Of a stretch of DNA of 64,000 nucleotides, positions 44,311 through 64,000 are shown piece after piece. The notes beneath the pieces were generated by a model that was not told where the DNA came from, ran no database searches, and worked only from the letters and a program-made list of their open reading frames with translations. The translations under genes and the position numbers were made by a program. The DNA comes from Barnesiella intestinihominis YIT 11860 (lineage in GTDB: Bacteria; Bacteroidota; Bacteroidia; Bacteroidales; Barnesiellaceae): the NCBI RefSeq assembly GCF_000296465.1, contig NZ_JH815205.1, positions 1-64,000 of the forward strand, read 5' to 3'. Numbering within the stretch: the stretch's first letter is position 1; each line of letters begins with the position of its first letter.

Positions 44311-44330
44311 TACCGCATAGCTGGAGAAAA

Positions 44331-45259: not shown

Positions 45260-45270
45260 CCCTTACCGAC

Positions 45271-45492: not shown

Positions 45493-45505
45493 AAATGACA
45501 GCGAT

Positions 45506-47250: not shown

Positions 47251-47274
47251 CATAACCCCTAAAACAACATTGAT

Positions 47275-47532: not shown

Positions 47533-47551
47533 CCATCTAAAAAGCAACATT

Positions 47552-48027: not shown

Positions 48028-48080
48028 ACGGGATGGCGGTGTCCGCACCGCCAATACTTAAAACCCTAAAAACAAAAGAT

Positions 48081-48389: not shown

Positions 48390-48483
48390 GTGGCGGGGCG
48401 GCGAGAGCCGCCCTACTTTCTTTCAGTGAGCATGATGGCGGACAAAGAAAGTAGCAAAGAAACCTTTGTCCAATCTGCGATAA

Positions 48484-48511
48484 CTAAAAAATCCGCAAGT
48501 AAAACTTGCGG
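48484..48511 (-). terminator. Rho-independent terminator for leftward transcription
   Basis: CCGCAAGT (48493-48500) and ACTTGCGG (48504-48511) form a perfect stem with a 3-base loop. On the minus strand it is followed by ATTTTTTAG. It would stop transcripts coming from ermF and the intron. Confidence 0.7.
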
Positions 48512-48849
48512 AGGCTATATATTGGGTCGTTATTTTTTGGTGGAGGGGAATGATAATCTCGAACCGTTGAACTACACATTTCTGCTTCGTCTCCATTTCC
48601 CCCAACGATTTGATACGTTCAATCATTTTTGTTGTTGAAATCGTGGAGAAGTGAATAGACAGTATTACCCGACAGAGCAACTATGACAACGTAACGCCTT
48701 TACAAAAAAGTCGGTACACGAAACCCATAGACTAATTGTCTTGACCTAAAAGAGATTGGAATTTTCAGGACTGCCTATCACTTAGATAGAAGTCCAAGGT
48801 CTGCTGAAATACATAATTCAAAAATTGAAATTGCTTGACTGCAAATTTA

Positions 48850-48859
48850 GTAACTTTGC
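48850..48859 (+). promoter_or_regulatory. TAACTTTG box, second GTANNTTTGC match
   Basis: GTAACTTTGC fits both a -7 promoter element (TAACTTTG) and the att-like core. A short frame, MKTDRI, starts at 48888 behind it and runs into the intron boundary. No clean -33 element at the right distance is seen. Confidence 0.35.
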
Positions 48860-48905
48860 TTGACAAATTAACGAGAAAGAAGAGAAAATGAAAACCGACC
48901 GCATA

Positions 48906-50819
48906 ATCGAGTAGACGGCTCCGCCAGTAACTGACGGAGTGCGCCTCTCACACCACCGAGCGTACGGGTCACGTACTCGGCGGTTCGCAAAGAGATGGGT
49001 TAAGTTGTAAATGTAATTCAGTTAAGGAAACATATCCTCTTTTCTTCAAGCGTTGTAAAGTAATGGTAGTGCCTAGAATAGGACTTTGTGCTATTGCCCA
49101 ACCGCCTTTCCGTGTTCTGCTCCAAGCGTAGGCATGGTCTTGGTCTACACCTAATCGAATCAGGTTTTTCCTTTTCCTTTCGGGTTTTTTCCAATGATGC
49201 CAAATGCAATAGCGCAGTCGGTTGCGAAGCCAACCATCTAAATCTCGTAATTTGCCCAAAATACTCGTGCCTTGGAAATAGTTCAACCATCCGCGTTGCA
49301 CTTCTTTTATCTTGGCAATACGCTCTTCAAATGTGGCTGGTGTGGTTTTTCGGGTGATTGTTTTAAGTCGTTCTTTTAGTTTCTTCCATGCTTTTTCCGA
49401 TACAATAAGTTGGTATTGATTTTTACTTCCTTTCTCGTACGTAGGTACGAATCCGAAACCCAAAATTGTGAAGTGGATTGGTTTTCTGATACCACTCTTT
49501 TCTTCATTTATAGTTAATTTGAGTTTGTTTTTCAAAAACTTTTCAATTACCACTCTTGTTGCCTTGGCTTGATTGTGGCTTTTGCAATAAATACTAAAAT
49601 CATCCGCATAACGTACAAATTTGTGTCCTCTTCGAGTCATTTCCTTATCCAGTTGATGTAGTAAAATGTTCGACAATAATGGACTTAAAGGGCTTCCTTG
49701 CGGAACGCCTTTTCTTCTCTTTCGTAGCTTTCCGTTGATTTTAATAGGTGCTCTGAGCCATTTGCGTATGAGTTGCATGGTAGCTTTGCATTTCACTTTT
49801 TGATAGATTAAATTCAGTAATAAACAGTGGTCAACTTCATCAAAGAAGTTTTTCAGGTCAATATCCACAATGTGGTTTAATCCTGAATGGATGTAATCCC
49901 GAGATTGTCCAACGGCTTGTCGGGCATTCTTGTGAGGTCTAAATCCATAGCTGTAATTACTAAATTCGGGCTCAAAAAGTGGTGCAATAGTTTGTGCTAA
50001 GGCTTGTTGCAACACACGTTCTGTAGTGGTGGGAACACCCAATAATCGAGTTTTCCCATTTCCTTTCGGAATTTCAATACCTAAAATGGGTTGTACTTGA
50101 TAGTTGCCTTGTTTGATTGCTTCAATCAGTTGTAGTTTCTTTTCAGAAAACACCTTGCGGAGCTCTCTTATAGAAACACCATCAACACCCGCACTACCTT
50201 TATTGGCAATCACGTGTTCCAATGCTCTTTGAAGATTAAACGGATGTACTACTCTTGTTATCATTTTAGTTGTTTTTAACCTGTTTTCGTTAAGTAGGGC
50301 TACTATGTGTTCCGTTACCTATTGAAAACCTCTTTACGTTCAGTCCTTCCTTGTTTGTGAGACCTATGCGGTATCTATTCGCACCTCGTTTGCCCTCAAG
50401 TACTATGACCTCTGCTGACTTCTTGGATTGATTAACTCGTAATCGCCAAGACCTCCCCTGGTAAATGCTTTTTCCTTCCGTCTATCGCCGGTACATCTAC
50501 ATAACAATAATCTGATTTAATAGCATGTTCAGAACACTGTTTTGGACTTCGTATTGCTGTGGATACTCATCCTTATTGTTATGCCTCTTATGTACTTTCT
50601 GTTCGTCGGTACAGACTTTTGCAGTTCTGCTTCCTTCAGTGCATACCTCACGATAAACCACCTTGCAGCTTGCTAACGATTCGGGGTTTCAATCCGCTCG
50701 TAAGGGACTTGCACCCTCTGGAAAAATAACACCCCGAAAACTTGGTTCGTAAAACTAAATTTGTATTTTTGAACTATTTGAAAAGCTTTCGGGGTGTGTC
50801 CTGCATATGCAGGGCACAC
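48906..50819 (-). mobile_element. Group II intron, class C type
   Basis: A retroelement of about 1.9 kb read leftward. The proposed 5' end is GTGTGCCC (50819), fitting the GUGYG rule; the 3' end is CTACTCGAT (48906). Domain V is visible near 48945-48985 as a stem GTACTCGGCGG/CCACCGAGCGTAC, followed by domain VI. It encodes the reverse transcriptase at 48969-50264. It inserted next to a large hairpin behind ermF, the kind of target class C introns use. Boundaries are accurate to a few bases only. Confidence 0.75.
48969..50264 (-). CDS. Group II intron reverse transcriptase/maturase (class C-like)
   Basis: A 431-residue intron-encoded protein. It has reverse transcriptase blocks (GVDGVSIREL, IPKGNGKTRLLGVPTTTERV, SYGFRPHKNARQAV, DIDLKNFFDEVDH, VPQGSPLSPLLSNILL) with the active site FVRYADDF, a maturase/thumb region (VQRGWLNYF) and a C-terminal DNA-binding part (WLRNRLRYCIWHHWKKP). 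There is no HNH nuclease domain, as in class C proteins such as GsI-IIC. It would splice the intron RNA and copy it into new sites. Its last codons (EPPST) run into intron domain V. Confidence 0.9.
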   Translation of the reverse strand: MITRVVHPFNLQRALEHVIANKGSAGVDGVSIRELRKVFSEKKLQLIEAIKQGNYQVQPILGIEIPKGNGKTRLLGVPTTTERVLQQALAQTIAPLFEPEFSNYSYGFRPHKNARQAVGQSRDYIHSGLNHIVDIDLKNFFDEVDHCLLLNLIYQKVKCKATMQLIRKWLRAPIKINGKLRKRRKGVPQGSPLSPLLSNILLHQLDKEMTRRGHKFVRYADDFSIYCKSHNQAKATRVVIEKFLKNKLKLTINEEKSGIRKPIHFTILGFGFVPTYEKGSKNQYQLIVSEKAWKKLKERLKTITRKTTPATFEERIAKIKEVQRGWLNYFQGTSILGKLRDLDGWLRNRLRYCIWHHWKKPERKRKNLIRLGVDQDHAYAWSRTRKGGWAIAQSPILGTTITLQRLKKRGYVSLTELHLQLNPSLCEPPST

Positions 50820-51009
50820 ACATATGGTAGCCGATAATTGCCGGCTTTCGTGCCAACTTGATACTTTGGTGCTTTTAACGAACCGAAGTGCTAAATTGAT
50901 ACGAAAGTGCTGTAAATCCGGCAACTACGGCTACCATTTTTCGTTATGCGGCAGCTTAAAAGACGACACCAAACCAGAAAAATCATCTTGACAACCACCC
51001 GACTTTGAA
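50265..51009. other. Intron 5' part and region behind ermF
   Basis: From 50265 to 50819 this is the structured 5' part of the class C intron (domains I-IV on the minus strand). From 50820 to 51009 it holds the inverted repeat and the short spacer behind the ermF stop codon. No protein gene is supported. Confidence 0.6.
50824..50937. repeat. Long imperfect inverted repeat behind ermF
   Basis: ATGGTAGCCG (50824-50833) pairs with CGGCTACCAT (50928-50937), and TTGCCGG (50838-50844) with CCGGCAA (50918-50924); the interior continues imperfectly. The outer arm TTATGCGG (50944-50951) matches CCGCATAA (48899-48906) on the far side of the intron, so the original structure was larger and is now split. 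Confidence 0.75.
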
Positions 51010-51810
51010 CTACGAAGGATGAAATTTTTCAGGGACAACTTCCAGCATTTCCAAAAAACAGTTTACCCATTGACTTGGAGACAAACAAACAATTTGAGCA
51101 TTAAGGTTTAAACCGAATTTTTCCGAAATTGACCTGACCTGACTTTTCCTGAAAATCGACTTTAAAGCTGTTTTTACAGATAAATCAGGTTTCTCTAACA
51201 GACAGGAAATAAATGCTAAGTATTTGGCTTTAAACTTAAAATCAAAAAATAACTGTTTTCTTTTAATGTTTAACAGGGCTGATTTGACAGTTGGCGGTGG
51301 AAAGAAACTTTCAGGACCTACCTCATAGACAAGTTTCAAATCAAAAAAAGTATGATAGAAAACGGTATATGGATTGTAAAGCTTCCTCGAAAATAACTTT
51401 TGTGTAGGTTCTAACTGAAGGACAATGGAACCTCCCAGAAAATTTCCAAGACTCTCAAACATCAGGATTTTGAAAATATCGGAAGTAATGCCATAAGGAA
51501 TATTTGACACCACTTTGAAAGGAAATTTCGGAACTGCAAAATTCCTAAAATCACAACCGACAACTTGAACATTTCGGGCATCAGAAAATAATTTTCGTAA
51601 ATGTTCAACCAAAGCTGTGTCGTTTTCAATAGCAACAACATTGTTGGCGATTTTTAATAAATGAACAGTAAGAAACCCCTTGCCTGCCCCAATATCTAAA
51701 ACCGTATCCTGATTACTTATATTTGCTTGTCTTATTGCATCTTTTATTAGCACTTTATCAATAGTAAAGTGCTGACCCGTAAAACGAACGGGCAATTTCT
51801 TTTTTGTCAT
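51010..51810 (-). CDS. ermF: Erm(F) 23S rRNA adenine-N6 methyltransferase
   Basis: A 266-residue Erm methyltransferase, recognised as Erm(F), which methylates A2058 of 23S rRNA and gives macrolide-lincosamide-streptogramin B resistance. SAM-binding motif I is VLDIGAGKGFLTVHLL, acidic motif II is AIENDTAL, and the catalytic motif IV is SNIPYGI. The start at 51810 (MTKKKLPVRFTGQHF) gives the known length. The frame stays open upstream, so an ATG at 51876 could add 22 residues. Low G+C compared with the surrounding tra genes marks it as a recent arrival. It lies between the lysozyme gene and the class C intron. Confidence 0.95.
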   Translation of the reverse strand: MTKKKLPVRFTGQHFTIDKVLIKDAIRQANISNQDTVLDIGAGKGFLTVHLLKIANNVVAIENDTALVEHLRKLFSDARNVQVVGCDFRNFAVPKFPFKVVSNIPYGITSDIFKILMFESLGNFLGGSIVLQLEPTQKLFSRKLYNPYTVFYHTFFDLKLVYEVGPESFFPPPTVKSALLNIKRKQLFFDFKFKAKYLAFISCLLEKPDLSVKTALKSIFRKSQVRSISEKFGLNLNAQIVCLSPSQWVNCFLEMLEVVPEKFHPS

Positions 51811-52029
51811 TAGTAACTTCTTACAGGTGAATACTTGAATTGTTCCTTTCTGAATTTTCCTAAATACTTTCTTCATAATTTCGCTATACTTTTTATGGTT
51901 AATAACTATGTTTTGTATTGCTCTCACAACACTTACAACTTGAAGTGTTATTTGGAAACCGATAGGCAAAAATGGCTCAACGATGTCAATTAACGAGAAA
52001 ATCCTACGATAATCTATCAAGTGATAGAG
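51811..52029. other. Region upstream of ermF
   Basis: About 220 AT-rich bases that should hold the ermF promoter; I found no clean TAnnTTTG box. AACACTT (51928-51934) and AAGTGTT (51943-51949) form an inverted repeat. No IS end was recognised. Confidence 0.4.
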
Positions 52030-52066
52030 CAAAAGACGTGCCAAGTTAAATATGGCACGTCTTTTG
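52030..52066. terminator. Strong terminator between lysozyme gene and ermF
   Basis: CAAAAGACGTGCC (52030-52042) and GGCACGTCTTTTG (52054-52066) form a perfect 13-base stem with an 11-base loop, with an internal T run on either strand. It probably ends the tra operon transcript. Confidence 0.8.
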
Positions 52067-52084
52067 CCAGTTTTGTCAGTCCTT

Positions 52085-52612
52085 TTATGGGATATACAAC
52101 AGCGCAAACTCCGCCTTTCTCCGTTTGAGCAGCATGGCGTGGCGTTTTCCTTTGTAGTTGCAGAAGGCTATATACTCACGGTAGATGTTCCTGTCACCAG
52201 CTTCCAGCTTCTTGATTAAGGTGCTTTTGGGGATTGTTTTGCTGCCTAACAGCTTCGCCGGTCCCACATTGTAAGCTAACGTGCCAAGCAAAATCGAATC
52301 AACCCCGAATTTACGGAACATGGCGACAAATTTGCGCAGGTCTTTCCGCAAAAGTTCATCCGCATCCCGTTTTGTCATGGTTCGTGCCGAATACTTCTCG
52401 TTTGGCAAAAGTTTGTGACCCCAACCGACGTATGGGTAGTGTTTTTCTGAGTGCCAGCCTTCAAAGTAGCGGCAGCATAAAAAAGCACGTTCCATAAGCG
52501 GCAGTCGGTAGATTGCCGCCTGCCCGTCCGTTCCCTCTTGGCGGCTGATCTGCGCGGACACAGAACAGACCGTCAGAAGTGAACAGAGCATTGTCATGAA
52601 TACACGCATCAT
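52085..52612 (-). CDS. Phage-type lysozyme (GH24-like) of the conjugation operon
   Basis: A 175-residue exported glycoside hydrolase. Signal peptide (MLCSLLTVCSVSA), catalytic glutamate in CRYFEGWHSEKHYPYVGWGH, and LAYNVGPAKLLGSKT resemble T4-lysozyme-like muramidases. It would open peptidoglycan locally so the mating channel can be built. It starts 4 bases before the end of traQ (overlap 52609-52612) and closes the tra operon, the usual place in CTnDOT-type elements. Confidence 0.85.
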   Translation of the reverse strand: MMRVFMTMLCSLLTVCSVSAQISRQEGTDGQAAIYRLPLMERAFLCCRYFEGWHSEKHYPYVGWGHKLLPNEKYSARTMTKRDADELLRKDLRKFVAMFRKFGVDSILLGTLAYNVGPAKLLGSKTIPKSTLIKKLEAGDRNIYREYIAFCNYKGKRHAMLLKRRKAEFALLYIP

Positions 52613-53112
52613 TTCAACAAGGGGCTGAAGTTGCCGATGGGAACGATGGTAAGATCGTCGTCCTTTACATTCCTGTTGTTGAAGTCAAATTCCAGTTCGT
52701 AGGAGTTGCTAAAGTTATCCTCCACCACCACGATGAAATTATGCGCCTCATCACCCGCCGCCGTGTAGTACAGGCGGAATTTTTCGTTCTCCAGCAGGTA
52801 GCGGTCGTTAGGCAGGAAGGTGATGCCGTTATCCATTTTGAGCGAGCCTTCCCCCTCGAACTGGAAATAGCGGATGGTATAGAGCGTACCCGAAAAGTCG
52901 CCCTCCTTTTTCAGTTCACAGCGGATTTCCACTGTCTGCCCCTTTACTACCTTGTTCGGCACGGGCATGACCTCCACCGTGAAGGGATAGGACTGCTGGA
53001 TGTCCATGTCATCGTCACATGACACGAGGGTGAATGACATGGCGGCTATCAGGCATAACGCCACTGCCTTGAATATTGATGTTCTCTTGTTTCTGTTGTT
53101 CAGTATGTTCAT
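52609..53112 (-). CDS. traQ: Conjugative transposon protein TraQ (DUF3872)
   Basis: A 167-residue lipoprotein: signal with lipobox ALCLIAAMSFTLVSC, then a beta-rich domain starting YPFTVEVMPVPNKVVKGQTV and ending NNRNVKDDDLTIVPIGNF. This matches DUF3872/TraQ of CTnDOT-type elements. I chose the ATG at 53112 (MNILNN), which gives the lipoprotein signal and overlaps the traP stop by 4 bases. Its role in transfer is not established. Confidence 0.85.
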   Translation of the reverse strand: MNILNNRNKRTSIFKAVALCLIAAMSFTLVSCDDDMDIQQSYPFTVEVMPVPNKVVKGQTVEIRCELKKEGDFSGTLYTIRYFQFEGEGSLKMDNGITFLPNDRYLLENEKFRLYYTAAGDEAHNFIVVVEDNFSNSYELEFDFNNRNVKDDDLTIVPIGNFSPLLK

Positions 53113-54011
53113 TGTTCTTCGATTTTTAGATGGTTGTTTTTCTGTTTTTTCGTTGTCAGTTGCAGGTACTCGTTCAAGTCCTTGCAACCGTCATAGAGGG
53201 AGGAACGGTCGGTGACACGTTCCCCGTATCGCATGGTAAGTGCGGCAAGCGTCCGCCGTCCGGCTTCGTCACGGTCGAGGAAGCAGCCGATGCGCCCGTA
53301 TCCGTCCAGCAATCCCGCCGCCTTCTCCACGTTGGCGACTGAGTTCAGCACAAGACAGTCAGCGTTACCGGTTACACCAAGCGTCACGGCAGAGAGAAAG
53401 TCCATGAAGCCCTCGAACACGAGGCACTCGTCAGCCGGGATGTCATTCGCCTTTACCAGTGATACAGACTTCGGAGGTATGCAACCCTTGAAATATCGGC
53501 TTCTGACTTCATAGCCACCTGCCATGTTCGGAAAGCCAACGGCAAAATACCGTTTCCCACGCACACCGTAGTTCAAGCGGCAGCAGTGACGGGATGCGAT
53601 GGCGTAAGGGATGCCCCGTTCCTCTAAATACTCCGTCAGCAGTGAGCGGAGCAGCGGAGCGACCTCCACATCCTCAAAAACGGATTCGGTCGGCTTCGAG
53701 AGATAGACGGGCTTTTCCCATCCGGCAACCGTCATATTGGCGGCTTCCGCTATGAACTTCGCTTGCTTCATGAAGTCATCGCTTTGCAGAAACTCCCCGG
53801 CAAGCGTGAAGATGTCGCCGCCCTTGCCCAAACCGAAGTCGTACCAGAGCTGTTTCGCCACGTTCACACGGAAAGAGGATGTGCGCTCGCCCCTGTACGG
53901 GGCAAGATACCACAGCTCGTTACCGCTCCTTCTGACAGGCTCATGCCCCAGCCGTGCGAGAAAATCCGCAAGCGGCATCCTTCTGACAGCATCTATTTCC
54001 GTCCTTTCCAT
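53109..54011 (-). CDS. traP: Conjugative transposon TraP, CHC2/Toprim primase-like
   Basis: A 300-residue DNA primase-like protein. The N-terminal part (about 1-95) resembles a CHC2 zinc-binding fold, with RGERTSSFRVNVAKQLWYDF and GKGGDIFTLAGEFLQSDDF, but its cysteines are largely missing. The C-terminal Toprim domain has ECLVFEGFMDFLSAV and GCFLDRDEAGRRT, with acidic metal ligands. It would prime the complementary strand of the transferred DNA. The ATG at 54011 is used; upstream codons lie in traO in another frame. Confidence 0.88.
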   Translation of the reverse strand: MERTEIDAVRRMPLADFLARLGHEPVRRSGNELWYLAPYRGERTSSFRVNVAKQLWYDFGLGKGGDIFTLAGEFLQSDDFMKQAKFIAEAANMTVAGWEKPVYLSKPTESVFEDVEVAPLLRSLLTEYLEERGIPYAIASRHCCRLNYGVRGKRYFAVGFPNMAGGYEVRSRYFKGCIPPKSVSLVKANDIPADECLVFEGFMDFLSAVTLGVTGNADCLVLNSVANVEKAAGLLDGYGRIGCFLDRDEAGRRTLAALTMRYGERVTDRSSLYDGCKDLNEYLQLTTKKQKNNHLKIEEQ

Positions 54012-54018
54012 GCCCGTG

Positions 54019-54594
54019 TCAGTTGATGATGAACTTGATACCGACCCCGAACTGCGTGTGGAACTTCCGTGTGTCGCCACCCCAAAGGCAACGCTCCCGC
54101 AGGTTGGCAAGCAGGGCGATACGGTCTGCCACGTAACACTCCACATCGAGCGTCAGCGCACCGCCGTAGATGAAGGCGTCCCGGTCGTGCAGCGTGGAGC
54201 CGTCATGCAGCACCTTCTTCCCCCAATTTACCGCCTCATATCCGGCGAGAGCCGAAGCCCCGGCATAGACGAAAACAATCTTTCGGGCGTCCGACAGTAT
54301 CTTGAAGTAATAGCCGCCCTCCGCCGTGAACTGCGCCACGGGTATCTTGGTGTCCTTGTAGGGATTGTTCTTCAACAGGTATTCGCCACCGAACACCCAC
54401 TTGTTCCCCTTCTTCGTGTAGGTGGAGAGAGCCGCCCCGAAGCTGTACCCGCCGTCCTTGCCGCCGAGATTGAAGCCGTCCGCCATGTCCGCCCTCACCT
54501 CGATGCCCTGCATCTTCGGCAGACACCGCTGGGCGTGCGCCTGCCCTGTAAAAAGGGCAAGCGACGCGATGATTATTGCGATGTACTTTCTCAT
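54019..54594 (-). CDS. traO: Conjugative transposon protein TraO
   Basis: A 191-residue exported protein (signal MRKYIAIIIASLALFTGQAHA). The mature part has alternating strands with GGYSFGAALSTYTKKGNKWV and FGVGIKFIIN at the end, like a small outer membrane beta-barrel. The pattern is that of the TraO family of Bacteroidales conjugation systems. It follows traN by 2 bases and precedes traP by 7. Confidence 0.88.
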   Translation of the reverse strand: MRKYIAIIIASLALFTGQAHAQRCLPKMQGIEVRADMADGFNLGGKDGGYSFGAALSTYTKKGNKWVFGGEYLLKNNPYKDTKIPVAQFTAEGGYYFKILSDARKIVFVYAGASALAGYEAVNWGKKVLHDGSTLHDRDAFIYGGALTLDVECYVADRIALLANLRERCLWGGDTRKFHTQFGVGIKFIIN

Positions 54595-54596
54595 GG

Positions 54597-55583
54597 TCAG
54601 CGTACTTGAAGTTCGTTGATGGTACCCGCGCGTACCAAATCCTCGTTCTCAATCACGAAGGACTGGTGACGGCCGCCGTTCTTCTCGTTCAATTCCACCA
54701 CGAGGCACTTGTCATCGGGGATGGTGAACTTCGCCATCGTGAAGACCGTGCGCTCGCTCTTTTTGCCCGGCACGAGGGTGGCGTAGTTCTGCGCGCGGAG
54801 CGGCAGAATAATCTGCTCCTGCACGGCAGTACGCTTCGCAACCTTCTTGTCCACGATTTTCCAAGTGATGTAGTCCACATCGAAAGGCACGTTGCTCTGG
54901 TTCTTTATCTCCGTGTGGAAATAAAGCAAGCCGTTGTGCGTGTAGATGCCTTTCAACAGGTATTGGATGCCGAAACGCTTGCAGCCGATATGCTTCACCT
55001 CGCGCTTGTTCTGTTTGTGGATGGACTTCATGATAAGGCGCACCAGCATCGGGCTTTCGCTGCCCAGCTCTTTCAGATAGATTTCCTGCGCGTTGTTCGG
55101 GCGGTTCACCGTGCTGCCGTCATGGATGAAGTCGCACATCTCCACGTTGAGCAACAGCGGTTCGGCGGCGTACTTCACGTTGAAGGTGTAGAAACTGCCG
55201 TCCTCCGTGATGACGGACATATTCGTTTCGTTGGGAAAATTCCTTACGGTAGCCTTCACACGGATGATGTTCTCCGCTCCGTCGGCTTTCCCGGCAATCA
55301 GGTCGGGCGAGCCTAAATCGACATAGCGCACCTCCGCCGGAAAAATGACGTGGACGGTCTTGTCGTAGGTCACTTCCAGACCGTGCGGCGGTATCATGCG
55401 GTCGAAGGTCAGCTTGCGTGACAGCCCGTGATATAGGTCGCCGTCCGCCTCCTTCTGCGGATAGACCTCCTTCGTCAAGGTCGGTTGTTCACTTCCGTTG
55501 GTCGTTTCAACGGTTACATTCTCCTGCGCGTTGGCAGTTATGATGCCCATAGCGAGGGCAAACATGATGATTACTTTTCTCAT
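54597..55583 (-). CDS. traN: Conjugative transposon protein TraN (DUF4138)
   Basis: A 328-residue exported protein with signal MRKVIIMFALAMGIITANA. The mature domain includes LTFDRMIPPHGLEVTYDKTV, HVIFPAEVRYVDLGSPDLIA and LYFHTEIKNQSNVPFDVDYI, typical of TraN/DUF4138, often compared with VirB9-type outer ring components. It is probably part of the periplasmic and outer membrane core of the mating channel with TraM and TraO. Confidence 0.9.
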   Translation of the reverse strand: MRKVIIMFALAMGIITANAQENVTVETTNGSEQPTLTKEVYPQKEADGDLYHGLSRKLTFDRMIPPHGLEVTYDKTVHVIFPAEVRYVDLGSPDLIAGKADGAENIIRVKATVRNFPNETNMSVITEDGSFYTFNVKYAAEPLLLNVEMCDFIHDGSTVNRPNNAQEIYLKELGSESPMLVRLIMKSIHKQNKREVKHIGCKRFGIQYLLKGIYTHNGLLYFHTEIKNQSNVPFDVDYITWKIVDKKVAKRTAVQEQIILPLRAQNYATLVPGKKSERTVFTMAKFTIPDDKCLVVELNEKNGGRHQSFVIENEDLVRAGTINELQVR

Positions 55584-55617
55584 TACTTTTGGATTTTAGT
55601 GGTAATTTTTATTGTTT

Positions 55618-56970
55618 TCAATATTTTTCTTGGTAAAGCATGACCCTGTACCCGGCTTTCAGATGCACCTTGACGGTTCGCATCTTTTTGGCGATGTACT
55701 GGCTCGTGCCTTGTATCAGCCCCTTGCCCAAGTCGGAGGCGAGCTGCGCCCCGGCATTGGTGGAGATGTTGATGCTGCTTCCCAGCGAGCCGCCCATGTT
55801 GGCGGCGACCTCCCGGACGGCGTTCATCTCCATCGAGTTCGGGATGAAGATGCCGGGCTGTCCGTCCGTGTCATAGACCGCAAGCTCCACGGGGATAATC
55901 GTGCCGTCGTATTCCAGCGAGGTAATCTCGATGTCGAGCCGCTCACCCTGTATCTTGCCCGTGCCGACCACCACCGCACCCCGGGGTATTGTCCTGCCTG
56001 CCACCGCCATAGGCTCCAGCAGGCGCAGCCTTACCGTCTGCCCGTCCGTCACGCTCTGCGCCCCATGCACGCACGCCGGTATGGTGTTCCTGTCCAATAC
56101 CTCCGCCGTGCCGACAGCCGTGTTGAAACCCCGGTTGCGTTCCTGCGATAAGGCGGCGACAAACTCCGCGTTACTCATAGGCTGTGAGAGTGAAGAAACT
56201 ACTTGATGCTCCACCTGTCTGATAGGCATTGCCTTGTTCTTCTTCCCTTTCTGCACGGTAGTTGGCTCTGCCCTCTGTTCCGCCGATGGCTGTCCTCCGT
56301 TCTGACCGCCCATGTACTTTGCCGCCAGCTCGTAGGACTTCTCCATAAGAGCCACCTGCTCGTCCATAGAGGAAGCCTTGCCCCTCTCGCTTTCCAGTTC
56401 CGACTCCAGCGATGCGATGCGCTCCAACAATTCGTCCATCTCCGCATTGTCGTTTTTCGGCTGGTCGTAGAAGTTTCCGAGCGTGGCGTTCAGGTCACGG
56501 TAGGCGGCTGCGGAGGACTGGATGGTCTGCGGCGTGGCTGGCTTTGCCCTTTCTTCCTTGCCGCCCGGATTGGCGAGGTCGAAGTCCACTCCGTTCTCCG
56601 TTCCCGCTATCTCGCGGTCGAACATGTCGCCCAGCTGCCCGATGGCACGGTTGCGGCTCTCCTGACGCTCTTCCATCTCCCCATGCTCGTAGGCTTTCAG
56701 CTTGTCGCCGATAATCTGCCGGTTCGCCTTGTCAGCGTCGGGCATCTCGGTGTTGTATCCGTCCGTTCCCGGCGGTTGCTCCTTGCCGGAGGACGGGGCG
56801 AATATCAGCCACATCGCCCCGATGAACACCAACACCATAGCGGGCAGCACGATCATCTTCTGCCGTTTCAGCCGTTGCGCCTCTGTCAGCGGTTCGCGCT
56901 CCTTTTTCGGTTTCCCCGTTTCGGGAGCAGCTTTGTTCTCTTTCGTCGGTTCATTCTTTGTCTGTTCCAT
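55618..56970 (-). CDS. traM: Conjugative transposon protein TraM
   Basis: A 450-residue protein with a cytoplasmic basic N-terminus, one membrane helix (IVLPAMVLVFIGAMWLIFAP, about 40-59), a long charged and coiled-coil middle (about 75-250), and a C-terminal beta domain with GAVVVGTGKIQGERLDIEIT and PGIFIPNSMEMNAVREVAAN, which resembles VirB10/TrbI-type cores. It would span the periplasm and link inner and outer membrane parts. Its start overlaps traL by 20 bases. Confidence 0.9.
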   Translation of the reverse strand: MEQTKNEPTKENKAAPETGKPKKEREPLTEAQRLKRQKMIVLPAMVLVFIGAMWLIFAPSSGKEQPPGTDGYNTEMPDADKANRQIIGDKLKAYEHGEMEERQESRNRAIGQLGDMFDREIAGTENGVDFDLANPGGKEERAKPATPQTIQSSAAAYRDLNATLGNFYDQPKNDNAEMDELLERIASLESELESERGKASSMDEQVALMEKSYELAAKYMGGQNGGQPSAEQRAEPTTVQKGKKNKAMPIRQVEHQVVSSLSQPMSNAEFVAALSQERNRGFNTAVGTAEVLDRNTIPACVHGAQSVTDGQTVRLRLLEPMAVAGRTIPRGAVVVGTGKIQGERLDIEITSLEYDGTIIPVELAVYDTDGQPGIFIPNSMEMNAVREVAANMGGSLGSSINISTNAGAQLASDLGKGLIQGTSQYIAKKMRTVKVHLKAGYRVMLYQEKY

Positions 56971-57259
56971 ATAAATAAGGTGTTAAGTGATTGCCTGTTT
57001 CCGCCGGGGTCGGCAGTTCCACCCGTCCGGCGTGTCCCGTTTCCATATGTGAGCCGTCGTTCCTGCCGATGTCATAGACGGCTCTGCCGAAGGTGTAAAG
57101 GGCAAGCACCGCGAAGGCGGCGAACATCCCCAGCACGATGCGGCGGCGTGTTTCCGGCGGCAAGCCGTCCAGATACCCTTTGAGACTTGCCGCCAAGCGT
57201 TTCCGTTTGTCGTGGAGTTTCCAATACATGCCCCACATTGATTTTCTGATACTTTTCAT
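56951..57259 (-). CDS. traL: Conjugative transposon protein TraL (DUF3989)
   Basis: A 102-residue membrane protein. A basic N-terminus (KLHDKRKRLAASLKGYLDG) is followed by one helix (IVLGMFAAFAVLALYTFGRA, about 41-60) and a short periplasmic tail. It fits the TraL position and family in CTnDOT-like operons. It lies 6 bases after traK and overlaps traM, so translation is probably coupled. Confidence 0.82.
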   Translation of the reverse strand: MKSIRKSMWGMYWKLHDKRKRLAASLKGYLDGLPPETRRRIVLGMFAAFAVLALYTFGRAVYDIGRNDGSHMETGHAGRVELPTPAETGNHLTPYLYGTDKE

Positions 57260-57265
57260 GTCCTG

Positions 57266-57889
57266 TTACCGTTTGATAGTCTGTAAATCCTTGTTCTCAA
57301 TGATGGTGAAACCCTCGATGGTAAAACCGTTCGGGTTGTCATCCGACCGCGATGCGTTCAGCAGGCGGCAGGTGGTCACGAGGCTGCGCTCGGTGACGTT
57401 GCTCTGCCGGATGATTTTCTGTGTGGCGTAGGTCACGGCACGGTAGGGATAGGCGTTGAAGTCGCACACCACGCTGTCCACCTTCAGCACTTGGTTGATG
57501 TTCCCGGCGATGATGCGGTTGTAGTACCCCTTCTCCGCGAAGTCCGAATAATAGTGGTACACGCTCTTGTCCGCCAGCAGCAAGGCACGTTTCACGTTGT
57601 GTTCAATCGCGCTTTTTTCAGGTGATAGCGTGAAGAACATCTCGTGGAAACGGCGCACATGTTCCCGTGCCTCCGCCGGGCGGTTCTGCGACAAATCCTG
57701 AGACAAGGCGAGCATCAGGCTCTTGCCGTTGTCCAGCACATAGATTTTCTCCCGTTGCTTCTCTGCGAAACGGTAGGAGTTCCACACGCTCCACACCGTC
57801 ACCACGGCGCACAGCGAGAGGAAGACGATACCGAACAGGCGTATCTGCCTGAACGACGATTCGATGTTTCTAAGTGATTTGAATTCCAT
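57266..57889 (-). CDS. traK: Conjugative transposon protein TraK (VirB8-like)
   Basis: A 207-residue inner membrane protein with one N-terminal helix (LFGIVFLSLCAVVTVWSVWN, about 19-38) and a periplasmic domain. The pattern RNIESSFRQIRLFGIVFLSL and SNVTERSLVTTCRLLNASRS is that of the TraK family, comparable to VirB8 assembly factors. It lies 31 bases after traJ. Confidence 0.88.
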   Translation of the reverse strand: MEFKSLRNIESSFRQIRLFGIVFLSLCAVVTVWSVWNSYRFAEKQREKIYVLDNGKSLMLALSQDLSQNRPAEAREHVRRFHEMFFTLSPEKSAIEHNVKRALLLADKSVYHYYSDFAEKGYYNRIIAGNINQVLKVDSVVCDFNAYPYRAVTYATQKIIRQSNVTERSLVTTCRLLNASRSDDNPNGFTIEGFTIIENKDLQTIKR

Positions 57890-57920
57890 TTATATTTTCC
57901 AATTTATGATTGCACATTGA

Positions 57921-58925
57921 TTATTTCAGCAATTTGCCGACACGTCCGACTGCGTTTCCTGCGGCTGCACCCGCCACGCTGCCCGCCATGCTTCCGGCTC
58001 GTCCCGCCATCTGGTTCACGTTGCGACCGTAACCGCCCATGCCTCCGGCTTGGATAATCCAGCCCGCAACGGTGGGAATGGTAAAGTAGCCGATGATGCC
58101 GATGCAGAGGAATACGATATACACCCCGTCGCTCGAATCCAGCGAGAAGTTCGGGTCTGCCTGCATCCGCTCGATGTCGTTTTGCAGCATCAGAACCTGT
58201 ATCTTCGCCAGTATGGTGCTGAACATGTCCGATACCGGTAGCCACAGATAGACCTGTATATAGCGGCATATCCACTGCGTGAGCGTGTTTTGGAAACCGT
58301 CCCATACCGACAGGGCGAAGGCTATCGGACCGAGAATCGCCAGCACCACGAGAAAGAAGGTGCGGACGGTGTCTATCACGAGGGCGGCGGCTTGGAACAG
58401 CAGTTCGAGTATCTCGCGGAAGAAGTCGCGGATGCTCTTCTTCATGTTGTACATTCCCCGGTCGATATACATTCCCGCCATCGTCACCATGTCGGAGGGC
58501 GACCAGCCGAGTTCCTCCAGTTGCTTGTCAAATTCCTCGTTGGACACGAGGTAGGCGGTTTCGGGGTTGCGTACCATCGCCTCGTATTCCAGTTTGTCCT
58601 TCTGCTCCCGGTATCGGTTCATGTCCAGCGTTTCCGCCTCCAGCATCTTTGCCGTGCCCTGTACGACGGGTGAGAGGATGCTGTTTATCGTGCCCAGCAC
58701 CACAGTCGGGAAGAACATGATGCACAGACCGATGGCAAAAGGACGGAGCATCGGGAATACGTCTATCGGTTCAGCTCTCGCCAGCGACTGCCATACCCGG
58801 TAGGCGACGTAGAACAGCGCACCCAGCCCGGCGATGCCTTTCGCCACACCAGCCATGTCCCCACACAGCGGCATCATCTGCTCATAAAGTGAACGTAAAA
58901 TCTGATGAAGGTTGTCGAACTTCAT
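57921..58925 (-). CDS. traJ: Conjugative transposon protein TraJ (VirB6-like)
   Basis: A 334-residue polytopic inner membrane protein with several helices (about 25-48, 70-95, 195-220, 275-300) and a glycine-alanine rich C-terminus (GRAGSMAGSVAGAAAGNAVG). The sequence includes QICRYIQ-like WICRYIQVYLWLPVSDMFST, typical of the TraJ family. It plays the VirB6 channel role. It starts 3 bases after traI. Confidence 0.88.
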   Translation of the reverse strand: MKFDNLHQILRSLYEQMMPLCGDMAGVAKGIAGLGALFYVAYRVWQSLARAEPIDVFPMLRPFAIGLCIMFFPTVVLGTINSILSPVVQGTAKMLEAETLDMNRYREQKDKLEYEAMVRNPETAYLVSNEEFDKQLEELGWSPSDMVTMAGMYIDRGMYNMKKSIRDFFREILELLFQAAALVIDTVRTFFLVVLAILGPIAFALSVWDGFQNTLTQWICRYIQVYLWLPVSDMFSTILAKIQVLMLQNDIERMQADPNFSLDSSDGVYIVFLCIGIIGYFTIPTVAGWIIQAGGMGGYGRNVNQMAGRAGSMAGSVAGAAAGNAVGRVGKLLK

Positions 58926-58928
58926 AGG

Positions 58929-59558
58929 CTACCAGTATCTTTCGTTCATGTTCCCGTACAGCCCCATGATGCGGTCGAGGTCGTTCTTCTTTTTCGCACG
59001 CAGGTAACTCACGGAGATGTTCTTGTTCGTGTAGTAGCTCACGAGGTTGCGGTAACGCTTCATCTTCGAGTGGCAGCGTTCCACCACGTCCATGCGCTCC
59101 TTGTCGGTCATGGAGAGCGTGGTGATGTTCACCACGTTCCTGAGTTCCGTCAACACTTCGTTGCTTTCCTCCAGCAGTTTCGTGTAGCCGAAAGCGATTG
59201 CGGAAAGCTCTTCGGGTCTGAAATTCCCGTCACGGAGCATCCGTTGGAAACTGTTCACATAGATGTCTGTGATGTCGCCCACCATCAGGATGGTCTGCTG
59301 CACCTTGCGGGCGTCCTTGACCAGATTGTTCACCGATTTGAGGGCATCGTAATACTTCTTGCCCTGCTGATAGATTTTCACCGTCTCCTGAAAGTTGCTC
59401 ACCATGTTCGTGGCGGTCTTGGAGGTATGGATGATGTTTTTGGAGGCATTGATGATGCCCTGCGCTAGATTGCCCGGATCGCTTACGACCCACTGTGCGC
59501 TTGCCCTGCCCGCGAAAAGCAGGCACAGGCAGATAATCATTGTTATTCTTGTTCTCAT
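58929..59558 (-). CDS. traI: Conjugative transposon protein TraI (DUF4141)
   Basis: A 209-residue exported protein with signal MRTRITMIICLCLLFAGRASA, then a helical, coiled-coil rich mature part (VVSDPGNLAQGIINASKNII, YNLV-like RNLVSYYTNKNISVSYLRAK). This is the DUF4141/TraI family, comparable to VirB5. Despite the letter it is not the relaxase TraI of F-like plasmids. It is probably periplasmic, at the tip or stem of the channel. Confidence 0.88.
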   Translation of the reverse strand: MRTRITMIICLCLLFAGRASAQWVVSDPGNLAQGIINASKNIIHTSKTATNMVSNFQETVKIYQQGKKYYDALKSVNNLVKDARKVQQTILMVGDITDIYVNSFQRMLRDGNFRPEELSAIAFGYTKLLEESNEVLTELRNVVNITTLSMTDKERMDVVERCHSKMKRYRNLVSYYTNKNISVSYLRAKKKNDLDRIMGLYGNMNERYW

Positions 59559-59581
59559 GTTACTTTGGATTTTAGTGGTTG

Positions 59582-59962
59582 TTATTCTTCGGTCGGATGT
59601 CCCGGCTGCGGCTTCACCCGCACATAGTCCCCGTTTGGCGAGAAAGTCAGCACATCCGTGGCCTCGTTGTAGGACACGTCGATGCGGAAGCCGGTGTTCA
59701 TGAACAGGTTGCCGTTCTCCTCCTGCAAGAGATAGGTTTCCGGCTTGAGCTTGCGGCGCAGACCGCTACGACGGAACACCGTCACTTTGTAGGCTTCGCC
59801 CTCCTTGTAGATAAGCACGTCAGGTTTTCCCTCCACGCTCTCCCAGTTCCCGCACAGCATGTCGCGGCGGTTGTCGGCCACGTCGCAGGATTGCAGCATC
59901 ATGACCGCCAATCCGATAAGGCACTTGCTGACTTGCAGCATTTTCACTTTTGGTAAATTCAT
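59582..59962 (-). CDS. traH: Conjugative transposon TraH-like protein (DUF3876)
   Basis: A 126-residue lipoprotein-like protein: CLIGLAVMMLQSC looks like a lipobox, and the compact beta-rich remainder (LCGNWESVEGKPDVLIYKEG, GFRIDVSYNEATDVLTFSPN) matches DUF3876, which holds the traH position in CTnDOT-type operons. The first ATG (59962) or the one at 59941 may be used. It follows the traG end by 40 bases. Confidence 0.75.
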   Translation of the reverse strand: MNLPKVKMLQVSKCLIGLAVMMLQSCDVADNRRDMLCGNWESVEGKPDVLIYKEGEAYKVTVFRRSGLRRKLKPETYLLQEENGNLFMNTGFRIDVSYNEATDVLTFSPNGDYVRVKPQPGHPTEE

Positions 59963-60002
59963 ACGCGTTTTTCTTTTTTGGTTGATACATTCTGTTTTTT
60001 AG

Positions 60003-60128
60003 TTATTCCTTGTTTCTCCGCCTTTCGGCAAGCTGCCGGATGGCGGCTTCGATGTCGTCGCCCAGCTTCTCCGCCAGACGGTAAACCTCCACTTTTTCCG
60101 TTTCCTCGGTGGTGTACGCGTAGGCTAA
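60003..60128 (-). CDS. traG: traG, 3' exon
   Basis: The last 41 codons of traG, from TTA at 60128 to TAA at 60003-60005, reading LAYAYTTEETEKVEVYRLAE, then a helical end ERRRNKE. It has no start of its own. Joined to codon CTG at 62608-62610 after removal of 60129-62607, the frame continues as EEYL-LAYAYTTEET, which fits the C-terminus of TraG proteins. Confidence 0.88.
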   Translation of the reverse strand, partial: LAYAYTTEETEKVEVYRLAEKLGDDIEAAIRQLAERRRNKE

Positions 60129-60222
60129 GTACCCAGCGCCTTGTCATATTTCTATGATAGGTTTCCGGGCACTCGCCCCCGAACCGGACTTACAAGTCTC
60201 CCTGTATCCGGCTCTCCACTAA

Positions 60223-62046
60223 TTAATTCAGTCTGATCCGTCGGTCGGGGTCTATCTTTGCATGACATTTCGAGCAGACCGCCAGCGTTTTGCGCCGCCG
60301 TGCGATCATGTTCTTCTCCCAATCGGACTTACCTTTCAGGTCTTTGAGTTTGCGGACATGGTGCATTTCGAGTTTGTCCGTAGCACCGCATAATTCGCAG
60401 ACTTGGAGTTTCAGCCTTTCCATTAGGCTGTTACGACCGCCCGTTATTGTAACTGTCCGCGGGATAGTGTCGCATGAGGTAGCCCCTGCGATTTTTTTGC
60501 GTTTGAAACCGTCGTGATAGAATGATTGGTAGAGCGTTTTACCCTTACTGTTCTCATATGCCACTTTGAACGTCCCGTCCTTTTTGTACTGGAATAGGAT
60601 TTTCTTTACAGACGACTTGTACTTTCTTGCGAAAGTCTTGTACATGCTGTATGACATGATGTGATAGAAAGAGTTGATGGCCGGGCTGTTATTGGCTATC
60701 GAGTAGTAGTTGTAGAATCCCCGGATTTCGGCGTTGAACTGACTGACTATTTCCAGGTCGTCCAAATCGATCATGTACGTTCTGACGATGGATTTCCATA
60801 CCTCTTTGCCGTTCACGACCGCTATTCTTGCGGCCTTGTAGTCAAAGAGTTTCTTTCGCATCGTTTCAAAATTCAGATACAAGACCGGGACGTGTCCGAA
60901 CGCCCTGACCGTTCTACCGTTTTTATCCTTGCGTAAATCATTGCTCCTACGGATAAAAATGTCGAATCCGAGGAACTTGGCGGGTTTCTGTGCGTTGGTT
61001 ATCAGTGTCTTTTCATCTGACAGTTCCAGTTTAAGAGCCTCTTTCAAATAGTTTTTAATGTCCTCTTTTACCGTTTTGCAGTCTTCCAGACTACCGATTA
61101 TTCCAATCAGAAAGTCATCTGCGTACCGAACGTATTTTATGCGTTTGATACTGCTGTCCATTTCATTACGCGCGGGAAACTTGTGCCTTTCTTCCCGTAG
61201 CCGCTTGATTTCAGCGGTCATCTGTTCTCTTACCTTTTCATCTTTCTCATTTTTCAGCTTCTTAGCCAGCCGGTATCTCCGCTGCTCGTAGAGCTTGTAC
61301 TGAGCGTTGCCTTTCCGTATTTCCCCCTTGTTGAACCGATTGATGTATTCCCGGATGTACTTGTCGAACTTGTCGAGGTAGATATTCGCCAATATAGGAC
61401 TGACGATACCGCCCTGCGGTGTCCCGCTGTACGTTCTGTGAAACACCCAATCTTCGATGTATCCGGCGTTAAGGAATTTGCGGATAAGCCGTAGAAATCT
61501 CTCGTCGGCGATGCGTTCCCGCAGGATGCCTATCAACACATCATGATCGATGTTGTCGTAGAACCCTTTGATGTCGCCCTCGATGAACCATTTCACGGCT
61601 GTGAATGACTTCTGTATGCTGATAAGTGCGGTATGGCAACTACGCCCGGGCCGAAACCCGTGTGAGGTATGCTCAAAACTGCCCTCGTAGATAGCTTCCA
61701 GTATCATTCTCACCACTTCCTGCACCAACTTGTCGTTGAATGAGGGGATGCCAAGCGGACGTTTCTTGCCGTTTTTCTTCGGTATGTACGCCCTTTTGGA
61801 CGGAGCTGGTTGATAAGTCTCGTTTTTCAGACTTTCAATCAGTTGCTCAATGCGTTCAATGCTCATTCCACTGACGGTTTTACCGTCAGTTCCTGCTGTC
61901 ATGTTGCCCGGTTTTGCGTAAATGCGCTCGTAGGCCACATAAAACATTTCCGCATTAAACAGCACTCTATACAGCCGCTCAAACTTGTAGTTTGAATTAC
62001 CGCTGTGTTTAGACAGACTGTTTAACACATTCTTTGGATTTCTCAT
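60223..62046 (-). CDS. ltrA: Group II intron reverse transcriptase/maturase with HNH domain
   Basis: A 607-residue intron-encoded protein. RT blocks include AGTDGKTVSGMSIERIEQLI, IPKKNGKKRPLGIPSFNDKL, SHGFRPGRSCHTALI, FIEGDIKGFYDNIDH, SGTPQGGIVSPILANIYL and the catalytic KYVRYADDFLIGI. A maturase domain follows (about 430-540), then a C-terminal HNH endonuclease with CELCGATDKLEMHHVRKL and VCSKCHAKI. It promotes splicing and retrohoming; the HNH part nicks the target strand. The layout and length differ from the class C protein at 48969, so the two introns were acquired independently. Confidence 0.93.
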   Translation of the reverse strand: MRNPKNVLNSLSKHSGNSNYKFERLYRVLFNAEMFYVAYERIYAKPGNMTAGTDGKTVSGMSIERIEQLIESLKNETYQPAPSKRAYIPKKNGKKRPLGIPSFNDKLVQEVVRMILEAIYEGSFEHTSHGFRPGRSCHTALISIQKSFTAVKWFIEGDIKGFYDNIDHDVLIGILRERIADERFLRLIRKFLNAGYIEDWVFHRTYSGTPQGGIVSPILANIYLDKFDKYIREYINRFNKGEIRKGNAQYKLYEQRRYRLAKKLKNEKDEKVREQMTAEIKRLREERHKFPARNEMDSSIKRIKYVRYADDFLIGIIGSLEDCKTVKEDIKNYLKEALKLELSDEKTLITNAQKPAKFLGFDIFIRRSNDLRKDKNGRTVRAFGHVPVLYLNFETMRKKLFDYKAARIAVVNGKEVWKSIVRTYMIDLDDLEIVSQFNAEIRGFYNYYSIANNSPAINSFYHIMSYSMYKTFARKYKSSVKKILFQYKKDGTFKVAYENSKGKTLYQSFYHDGFKRKKIAGATSCDTIPRTVTITGGRNSLMERLKLQVCELCGATDKLEMHHVRKLKDLKGKSDWEKNMIARRRKTLAVCSKCHAKIDPDRRIRLN

Positions 62047-62595
62047 GTCTCACACATTTTCCGTTAAATTGTTAAACTTAATTAGCTGCTTCCCTTCGCC
62101 ATGTACAGGGCGTTACCCTGCTCAGACTACTATGGAAGCTCCGTTGCCATGCCGGATATTCATAGGTCTACACCTAATAGCCTTGCGGCGTTCCGGTTTA
62201 GGCAATCCCCGTTTAGGAACTTGACAACTGTTTGGCGCGATAGATTGTCGGATACGACTTTCGTCCTTTACTGCTTATGGCAGTTGCCCTGCGGTCAGTT
62301 TATGCTACATCCGCTATCTGTCATCGGTGTAGTACCGCAGTGTGACGTATATAACTATCTTCCGTCACCGCCCAAGGATACGACTGCTCGGACTATCGTT
62401 CAACCAATGCAGGCTTTATCCTTATATCTATCTTTTTAACTTGCCATTCAGTCGCAGCCTGATAGTTGGCTGACTTATGGCTTTACCAACGTGCTGTGTT
62501 CCCTTATGGGGTTTCCCCCTCCGGTAAGCGGTTGTTAATGGGCATTTTAAACACTTGCCCAGTCGCTTGCCAAAGCGACATTCGTCAAATTCCCT
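62047..62595. other. 5' structural part of the traG intron
   Basis: Intron domains I-IV ahead of the reverse transcriptase start, on the minus strand. Open frames here (for example 62101-62439 on the plus strand) are by-products of RNA structure. No gene is supported. Confidence 0.7.
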
Positions 62596-62607
62596 TTACG
62601 GGCGCAC

Positions 62608-64000
62608 CAGATACTCTTCCGCGCTGACCTCCGTGGCATAGACCGCCGACTGCGTGCCGCCCAAGCCTATCCACACCTCCTTGTAGAGCCGTGAAGGGTT
62701 GTTCGCCATGTTGATGGAGAGTATCTGCGACTTCTCCTTTTCCGTCAGTCCGAGCAACGCCTGTATCTGGTCGAACTTGTTCATATATTTCCTTTGGTCA
62801 AGCAGGATTTTACAATCCGAGTTGTTGATAATGCTCTCTTTGACCACCGGAGAACTGATAATGTCGTCCACCTCCTGCGTCACCACGATTGCCTCGCCGT
62901 AATATTTTCTGACCGTCTTATACATATAGCGCAGATATTCAGCCATGTTCGCCGATGAGAGGGCCTTCCAAGCCTCTTCCACGATAAGCTGTTTCCGCAC
63001 GCCTTTCAGCCGCCGCATCTTGTTGATGAAGGCTTCCATGATGATGATGGTCACGACGGGGAACAGTTCGCGGTTTTCTTTAATCGAATCTATCTCGAAG
63101 ACGATGAACCGCTTGCCGAGCAGGTCGATGTTCTCCGTGGAGTTGAGCAGGAAATCGTAACGCCCGCCCCGGTAATACTGCCGCATGGTGGTGAGCATGT
63201 TGTCGATGTTGAAGTCGGACTTCTCCACCTTGATGTCACGCTGTGCCAGTTCCTTGCGGTAGTCGTCACGCATATACTCGTAGAAGGTGTTGAACGACGG
63301 CACGATGCTACGGTCGGATTGGATGCGCTCAATATAGGCACTCACGGCACTGCCCAGCTCGCCGCTCTCCGTCTTTGTCACCTTGTCGTCCTCCGACTTC
63401 CAGAGCGTCAGCAACAGGGTCTTGATGCTGTCCTTCTTCTCCACGTCGAAGATGTAATCGTCGGTGTAGAACGGGTTGAAGCTGATGGGCTTATCTTCCG
63501 TGTAGGTGAAATACACACCGTCCGCTCCGCCTGTCTTGCGTCGGATCATGCCGCACAAGCCCTGATAGGAGTTTCCCGTGTCCACCAATACCACATGTGC
63601 GCCTTGCTCATAATATTGGCGCACGAGGTGGTTCATGAAGAAAGACTTGCCGCTGCCCGAAGGACCCAGCACGAACTTGTTGCGGTTGGTCGTGATACCT
63701 CGCTTCATGGGCAGGTCGGAGATGTCAAGGTGCAGCGGTTTTCCCGTGAGCCTGTCCACCATCTTGATGCCGAAGGGCGAGAGCGAGCTGCGGTAGTTGG
63801 TTTCCTCTGTGAACAGGCACACCGCCTGTTCGATGAAGGTGTGGAAACTCTCTTCCGCCGGGAAGTCCGCCGCATTGCCGGGTATCGCCGCCCAGTAGAG
63901 TGTCGGGCAGTCGATGGTGTTGTGGCGCGGCACGCATTCCATGCTTGCCAACTGGCTGCCCACGTCGTTCTTGATATGCTTCAGTTCCTCCGCATCGTCG
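62608..64000 (-). CDS. traG: traG, 5' exon (runs off the right edge)
   Basis: A VirB4-like conjugation ATPase, partial: the frame is open to base 64000 and its start lies outside. Visible are PCVPRHN-like MECVPRHNTIDCPTLYWAAI, Walker A GPSGSGKSFFMNHLV, KPISFNPFYTDDYIFDVEKK, Walker B KQLIVEEAWKALSSANMA and VVTQEVDDIISSPVVKESII. It powers assembly and substrate transfer of the mating channel. The coding part ends at CTG 62608, where the group II intron begins. Confidence 0.92.

What the first reader, a model, noticed from the sequence alone, without database searches (positions are those of the whole stretch)
60003..62610. traG is split by a group II intron whose precise removal restores the frame
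The TraG frame stops three codons into a sequence that begins GTGCG. A 42-codon tail of TraG without a start lies 2.5 kb further on. Joining CTG (62608) to TTA (60128) gives EEYL-LAYAYTTEET in frame, with GUGYG at one end, a domain V and a terminal AC at the other. Conjugation by this element would depend on intron splicing, so a retroelement sits in an essential ATPase gene of its own carrier.
Basis: partly seen in the sequence, partly recalled or inferred. Interest (0 to 1): 0.75.

Follow-up and report, generated by a model that had tools for sequence, protein, structure and literature searches.

The report
Self-splicing intron inside conjugation ATPase gene
A self-splicing, self-copying RNA element sits inside a gene that a gut-bacterial mobile element needs to move between cells, and its relatives sit in other genes of the same transfer machinery, so this kind of gene transfer probably depends on RNA splicing.

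Summary
A complete group II intron (62607 to 60120, minus strand, 2488 nt) interrupts traG of a CTnDOT-type conjugative element that also carries erm(F). The 3' exon is 39 codons including the stop.

The intron encodes a full-length LtrA-type protein. EBS1 pairs 6 of 6 with the 5' exon; EBS2 and delta-delta' pairings were not found for this copy. Ten other loci from several Bacteroidales families hold the same intron at the same traG site (one seen only on its 5' side); an eleventh is truncated. Introns there are often far more alike than their exons, as expected of homing.

Relatives sit at 12 further sites in tra/mob genes, so the lineage favours conjugation genes. The kind is known (Ll.LtrB in a relaxase gene); my searches found no printed account of this traG case. 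Splicing in vivo, and dependence of transfer on it, are inferred. The genome holds no second TraG, but unspliced TraG lacks only its last 38 residues.

The parts
62608..64000 (-). traG 5' exon (in the window; the TraG match runs on to contig position 64995)
   Evidence: TIGR03783 919 bits, positions 346-796; whole-genome match 62587-64995
62608..62613 (-). IBS1, last six bases of the 5' exon
   Evidence: pairs 6 of 6 with EBS1
60120..62607 (-). group II intron, 2488 nt, GUGCG...CCUAC
   Evidence: empty sites in L015, L016, L021; RF00029
62315..62320 (-). EBS1 (CAGAUA)
   Evidence: position read; pairing and permutation test
60223..62046 (-). intron-encoded protein, 607 aa: reverse transcriptase, maturase, HNH endonuclease
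   Evidence: LtrA E 2e-153; PF00078, PF01348, PF21368
60181..60214 (-). domain V
   Evidence: RF00029; consensus fold of 17 introns
60122..60178 (-). domain VI
   Evidence: consensus fold
60126..60126 (-). bulged A of domain VI, presumed branch point, seventh base from the 3' end
   Evidence: unpaired and invariant in 17 introns
60003..60119 (-). traG 3' exon, 38 codons plus stop
   Evidence: TIGR03783 795-828 at 60021-60122
53016..59962 (-). rest of the tra operon held in the window (traJ 57921-58925, traK 57266-57889, traM 55618-56970, traN 54597-55583 named by family; the other frames in this stretch not assigned here)
   Evidence: TIGR03779, 03780, 03781 and 03782 above cut-off
51010..51810 (-). 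erm(F), intact
   Evidence: NF012223 604.6 bits against cut-off 575, residues 100-365 of the longer ORF
48969..50657 (-). second, unrelated group II intron (5' domains and intron protein)
   Evidence: RF02001 and RF01998; TIGR04416 368.8 bits

Best explanation
A mobile group II intron with an LtrA-type protein has homed into a conserved site near the 3' end of traG, the VirB4-like ATPase gene of a CTnDOT-type ICE. After transcription the intron RNA folds with help from its own protein, EBS1 holds the last exon bases, the bulged A of domain VI attacks the 5' splice site, and the exons are joined in frame so that full-length TraG is made. The excised RNA with its protein can reverse-splice into intron-free traG alleles of other ICEs. 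Shown here: intron anatomy, exact ends, natural empty sites, disagreement between intron and exon relationships, and matching of EBS1 to its own target across sites. Inferred: splicing and mobility in this host, and dependence of conjugation on splicing.
For: Empty sites at base precision, one in an element otherwise 99.9-100% identical in the aligned blocks. Domain V/VI and a fold in which 20 of 35 pairs have a compensatory change. Complete LtrA-like protein with the YADD box and the Cys/His motif of the endonuclease. EBS1-IBS1 6 of 6; over 13 sites mean score 4.69 against 2.41 shuffled, 0 of 20,000 shuffles reach it. Same site in ten other loci with incongruent exons. Tail under constraint in nine intron-bearing alleles, pooled pN/pS 0.236. 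No other TraG in the genome.
Against: No RNA data. This copy has no convincing EBS2 (2.5, below its mean of 2.83 with other exons) and its delta and delta' bases (A and G) do not pair; all 4 introns tested at this site fail that pairing. Other copies at this site pair worse at EBS1 (L003 3.5, L007 1.5, L010 4, L012 2, of 6). Unspliced TraG lacks only 38 residues and might keep some activity. Tail constraint may predate insertion.
Confidence: 0.85

Rival explanations
1. The intron is present but splices poorly in this host, so mostly truncated TraG is made and the element transfers poorly or only with outside help.
For: EBS2 and delta-delta' pairings not found for this copy. No transcript data. 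L011 shows that truncated intron/traG copies do occur.
Against: Intact protein, domains V and VI, branch A and EBS1. The same lineage spreads as near-identical copies among diverged alleles, which needs active introns.
Confidence: 0.12
2. Splicing occurs but matters little, because TraG without its last 38 residues still works.
For: The break is late in the gene; the 5' piece holds 380 of 413 positions of the TraG P-loop domain.
Against: The tail completes that domain and is conserved among intron-bearing alleles. Relatives interrupt traG at 497, about 521, 639 and about 690, where much more would be lost.
Confidence: 0.15
3. Assembly error or ordinary insertion that only resembles an intron.
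For: None found.
Against: The split recurs at the same base in ten other loci, nine with both borders seen, although some of these may be copies of one element (L002 and L004; L007 and L008 lie in one genome).
Confidence: 0.01

Closest known systems
Ll.LtrB and Ef.PcfG (relaxase genes ltrB and pcfG of lactococcal and enterococcal conjugative plasmids)
   Same: LtrA-type protein, co-linear over residues 6-597. Similar size: 2492 nt for Ll.LtrB (PMC5072309 passages), 2488 here. One conserved site in a conjugation gene, introns more alike than exons.
   Different: Another gene (VirB4-type ATPase, not relaxase), another phylum, a lineage with many sites in tra/mob genes. delta-delta' not met at this site.
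B.th.I1 and B.th.I2 of plasmid pAW63
   Same: Group II introns in conjugation genes, a VirD4 homolog and a Tn916 ORF14-like gene (PMC1196294 passages).
   Different: Other genes and hosts; relatedness to the present intron not tested here.
Group II intron proteins beside traG in B. thetaiotaomicron (BT2297/BT2298, BT2602/BT2603)
   Same: An expression table lists intron proteins next to traG (PMC10434189 passages).
   Different: The passages say nothing of an intron splitting traG; I could not examine that genome.
Group II intron inserted with erm(F) in CTnDOT-like elements
   Same: Probably corresponds to the second intron of this window, 48969-50657 (PMC6907783 passages).
   Different: Not the traG intron.

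Membership tests
Group II intron | GUGYG 5' end and AY 3' end at the borders of the insertion | tested here: met
   GUGCG at 62607, AC ending at 60120
Group II intron | catalytic domain V | tested here: met
   RF00029 60.4 bits, cut-off 40; compensatory changes
Group II intron | domain VI with bulged A near the 3' end | tested here: met
   A at 60126, seventh base from the end, unpaired and invariant
[quoted passage not shown]
   607 aa, PF00078, PF01348, PF21368; TIGR04416 at 296.4 bits, just under its cut-off of 300
Group II intron | EBS1-IBS1 pairing | tested here: met
   6 of 6; 13-site permutation 0 of 20,000
Group II intron | self-splicing | not testable with these tools
   needs RNA
IIA/mitochondrial-like lineage (Ll.LtrB) | LtrA-like protein along its whole length | tested here: met
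   E 2e-153, next solved relative 9e-42; no reference tree of intron classes was made
IIA/mitochondrial-like lineage (Ll.LtrB) | delta-delta' pairing (IIA hallmark, recalled) | tested here: not met
   0 of 4 introns at this site; 10 of 11 introns at other sites pair. So this copy is called LtrA-type, not filed as IIA
IIA/mitochondrial-like lineage (Ll.LtrB) | EBS2-IBS2 pairing | tested here: inconclusive
   clade above shuffles (93 of 20,000 reach it), this copy not
CTnDOT-type ICE (carrier) | tra operon of the Bac_Flav_CT families | tested here: met
   traG, traJ, traK, traM, traN above cut-off
CTnDOT-type ICE (carrier) | integrase, excision genes and att ends | not tested
   they lie outside the stretch I studied

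The most novel reading that the evidence does not exclude
A Bacteroidales-wide lineage of LtrA-type introns lives mainly in the transfer machinery of CTnDOT-type ICEs: 13 sites in 8 tra/mob genes (traA, traE, traF, traG, traI, traN, mobB, mobC; five sites in traG), with copies at one site forming one sub-lineage where several were placed on a tree. A second intron class also hits traG (after 307 and 676), and one ICE (L002) has introns at traE, traG and traI. If all must splice, conjugation there depends on several ribozymes at once, and introns may act as a brake on transfer, as reported for Ll.LtrB (PMC6003770).
Probability: 0.5. Interest if true: 0.68.

Novelty: new member of a known kind. 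Interest (0 to 1): 0.52.

Why it matters
CTnDOT-type ICEs are important carriers of resistance genes in gut Bacteroidales (recalled; erm(F) lies in this one). If their transfer ATPase and other transfer genes need ribozyme splicing, intron splicing is a control point for conjugation in the gut. Near-identical elements with and without the intron exist in nature, so what introns cost or give their carriers becomes testable. The pattern fits the idea that group II introns persist in bacteria by settling in the genes that spread them.

Tried and rejected
EBS2 for the window copy: none convincing. delta-delta' for the window copy: not met. An order-wide DNA search (393 genomes) gave 14 genomes with a match; nine had only short stretches (under 90 nt) that I did not follow. 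L013 and L014 are distant RT matches and were not used. No tree with reference intron classes was made. The second intron was checked for domain V up to E = 1; none was found. My paper searches listed no paper whose title, abstract start or passages seen describe an intron splitting Bacteroidales traG; not every listed paper was opened, and the library lacks most subscription journals. The host is probably Barnesiella: my guess from family size and a genus-mate in one 3.08-Mb contig, not a tool result.

Full report
Observation. On the minus strand the TraG frame runs into GTGCG at 62607 and meets TAA as the fourth intron codon. The window's 5' piece matches TIGR03783 positions 346-796. In the whole genome two places match the family, positions 1-802 and 795-828, and no others; the few positions beyond 796 in the first and before 797 in the second are intron codons read as protein. 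A frame of 607 aa (60223-62046) matches RT, maturase and HNH families. Its best solved relative is LtrA of Ll.LtrB, co-linear over residues 6-597 at E 2e-153, with the YADD box and the Cys/His motif of the endonuclease (motif names recalled). Rfam finds domain V/VI at 60216-60120.

Exact ends. Each exon was compared separately with natural traG genes. In L015 (Parabacteroides distasonis plasmid record), L016 (Phocaeicola massiliensis OY726006.1) and L021 (unnamed same-genus genome G003) the 5' exon matches up to 62608 and the next subject base matches 60119. So the intron is 62607 to 60120, 2488 nt; one base of ambiguity (a shared G) is settled by the GUGCG start. Three further results agree. 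The 17 aligned intron ends close with AGCCTAC or AGCCTAT whatever gene follows (I set three of those ends, L042, L076 and L077, by that motif). The domain VI consensus pairs those bases with the start of domain VI and leaves an invariant A bulged at the seventh base from the end, 60126; 20 of 35 pairs have at least one compensatory change. The Rfam match ends at 60120.

Nearly identical element without the intron. Within window 44034-63696, OY726006.1 matches in four blocks of 4603, 1188, 7106 and 1090 nt at 99.9-100%, but lacks the traG intron and lacks 48637-51839, the stretch with most of erm(F) and the second intron; it has about 1.2 kb extra near 53016. Intact copies of this traG therefore exist in nature.

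Same intron, same site, other alleles. Of 13 loci returned for the protein in genome contigs, nine (L002-L010) carry the intron at this traG site with both borders seen. L012 shows the 5' border and 873 nt before its contig ends. L011 has the same 5' border but has lost the intron's 3' part and the start of exon 3. L013 and L014 are distant RT matches and were not examined. L002 and L004 agree at 100.0% in intron and 5' exon; L007, L008 and L011 lie in one contig. Carriers are labelled Muribaculaceae, Bacteroides, Dysgonomonas, Alistipes and Bacteroidales. Intron and exon disagree: window against L012, intron 95.5% and exon 70.9%; L003 against L005, intron 100.0% and exon 90.3%; window against L003, exon 97.8% and intron 85.7%. 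This is the mark of repeated homing.

Target recognition. EBS1 (62320-62315) pairs 6 of 6 with the last six exon bases. With one representative per site (13 sites; the window copy stands for its site) the mean score with own exons is 4.69, against 2.41 with shuffled exons, and 0 of 20,000 shuffles reach it. Low own scores within the 13 are G417 2, G453 1.5, G313 3 and G483 3.5. For EBS2 the set is above shuffles (93 of 20,000 reach it), but the window copy is not (2.5 against 2.83 with other exons). delta-delta' pairs in 10 of 11 introns at other sites and 0 of 4 at this site; in the introns with weak EBS1 the delta base is itself uncertain. So one pairing is strong in this copy and two expected ones are missing.

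Relatives at other sites. Introns of this clade found by DNA similarity (64-74% identity for matches of 600 nt or more outside the traG796 group) were placed with tra/mob proteins of L095 and flanking frames. Some hits repeat loci (G406:C238 is L010; G604 holds L007, L008 and L011; G618 appears to be L009). Sites in L095 residue numbers: traG 796, 497, about 521, 639 (G406; G424 at the same place by its 3' border, by eye) and about 690 (G483, G596); traF about 22; traI 72; traN about 77 (3' side only); a traE-like gene; a ParA-like gene taken as traA (5' side only, by eye from its P-loop motif); mobB about 108 and, in another genome, about 116; mobC about 384 in several genomes. Other sites: an ArdC-like gene and a tyrosine integrase, a second integrase (by eye), and two large genes, one with methylase and helicase domains and one with helicase domains. 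G627, G483:C43, L017, G640 and the short matches stay unassigned. That makes 13 tra/mob sites in 8 genes, 12 besides the window's. The search began from a traG intron, so traG796 copies are over-represented; I made no test against a random expectation. In the tree of 29 proteins (not all loci), copies at one site group together: traG796 100/100, mobC384 100/100, integrase 100/100, traG690 89/91; traG796 and mobC384 are sisters at 97/97.

A second intron class in traG. Introns with an RF02012 5' domain and a far more distant protein interrupt traG after 676 (L011, L122, L123) and about 307 (L124), with RF00029 ends abutting the next TraG residue. L002 holds three introns: one ending at traE residue 71 (its 5' side is not in the locus), one at traG796 and one in traI near 67-69. 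In a family search of 61 genomes of one genus the listed rows (the list is cut) show traG breaks at these places in G596, G598, G604 and G644, beside many uninterrupted copies.

Function. The 5' piece covers 1-380 of 413 positions of the P-loop_TraG domain; the 3' exon would supply the rest. The tail is conserved among intron-bearing alleles: pN/pS 0.05-0.33 for the eight pairs with the window, 0.236 pooled over all pairs of nine alleles, first 36 codons. Those pairs are not independent and selection may predate insertion. The genome has no second TraG and one copy of this protein; the only other match is the second intron's, 32% identical. [quoted passage not shown] So full-length TraG, and probably transfer, should depend on splicing. 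That is inference.

What is known. Ll.LtrB lies in a relaxase gene and lowers its expression and plasmid transfer (PMC6003770: abstract start in the listing, passages). Ef.PcfG and Ll.LtrB share one relaxase site with diverged exons (PMC5072309, passages). pAW63 has two introns in transfer-region genes (PMC1196294, passages). PMC6907783 (passages) reports a group II intron inserted with erm(F) in CTnDOT-like elements. PMC10434189 (passages) lists intron proteins beside traG in B. thetaiotaomicron. PMC13026095 (passage) notes group II intron RTs in Parabacteroides elements. PMC13274422 (passages) had nothing on point. In what I saw of the papers listed, none describes an intron splitting Bacteroidales traG.

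Verdict. It is a new member of a known kind. The wider pattern, an intron lineage settled largely in the conjugation genes of gut ICEs, is the more interesting result.

Noticed in passing
window 48637-51839: Stretch absent from the near-identical element OY726006.1; it holds erm(F) up to near its start and a second, unrelated group II intron for which no domain V was found up to E = 1.
   Followed up: partly
L002 1-11821: One ICE with three group II introns, at traE, traG and traI, of two classes.
   Followed up: partly
L122, L123, L011 (after TraG 676) and L124 (after about TraG 307): A different intron class (RF02012) also splits traG, at its own sites.
   Followed up: partly
window 53016-53027: OY726006.1 has about 1.2 kb more at this place; the flanking blocks overlap by 12 bases.
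   Followed up: no
window 21072-21125 (+): Rfam match to an Enterococcus sRNA family (Ref55, 48.9 bits, cut-off 43), unexpected in a Bacteroidales genome.
   Followed up: no
L119 and L110: Relatives of the intron sit directly behind the TTQIYA stretch of integrase genes.
   Followed up: no
window 240-5164 (-): Two adjacent frames matching DNase/exonuclease families, one with a T9SS sorting signal.
   Followed up: no
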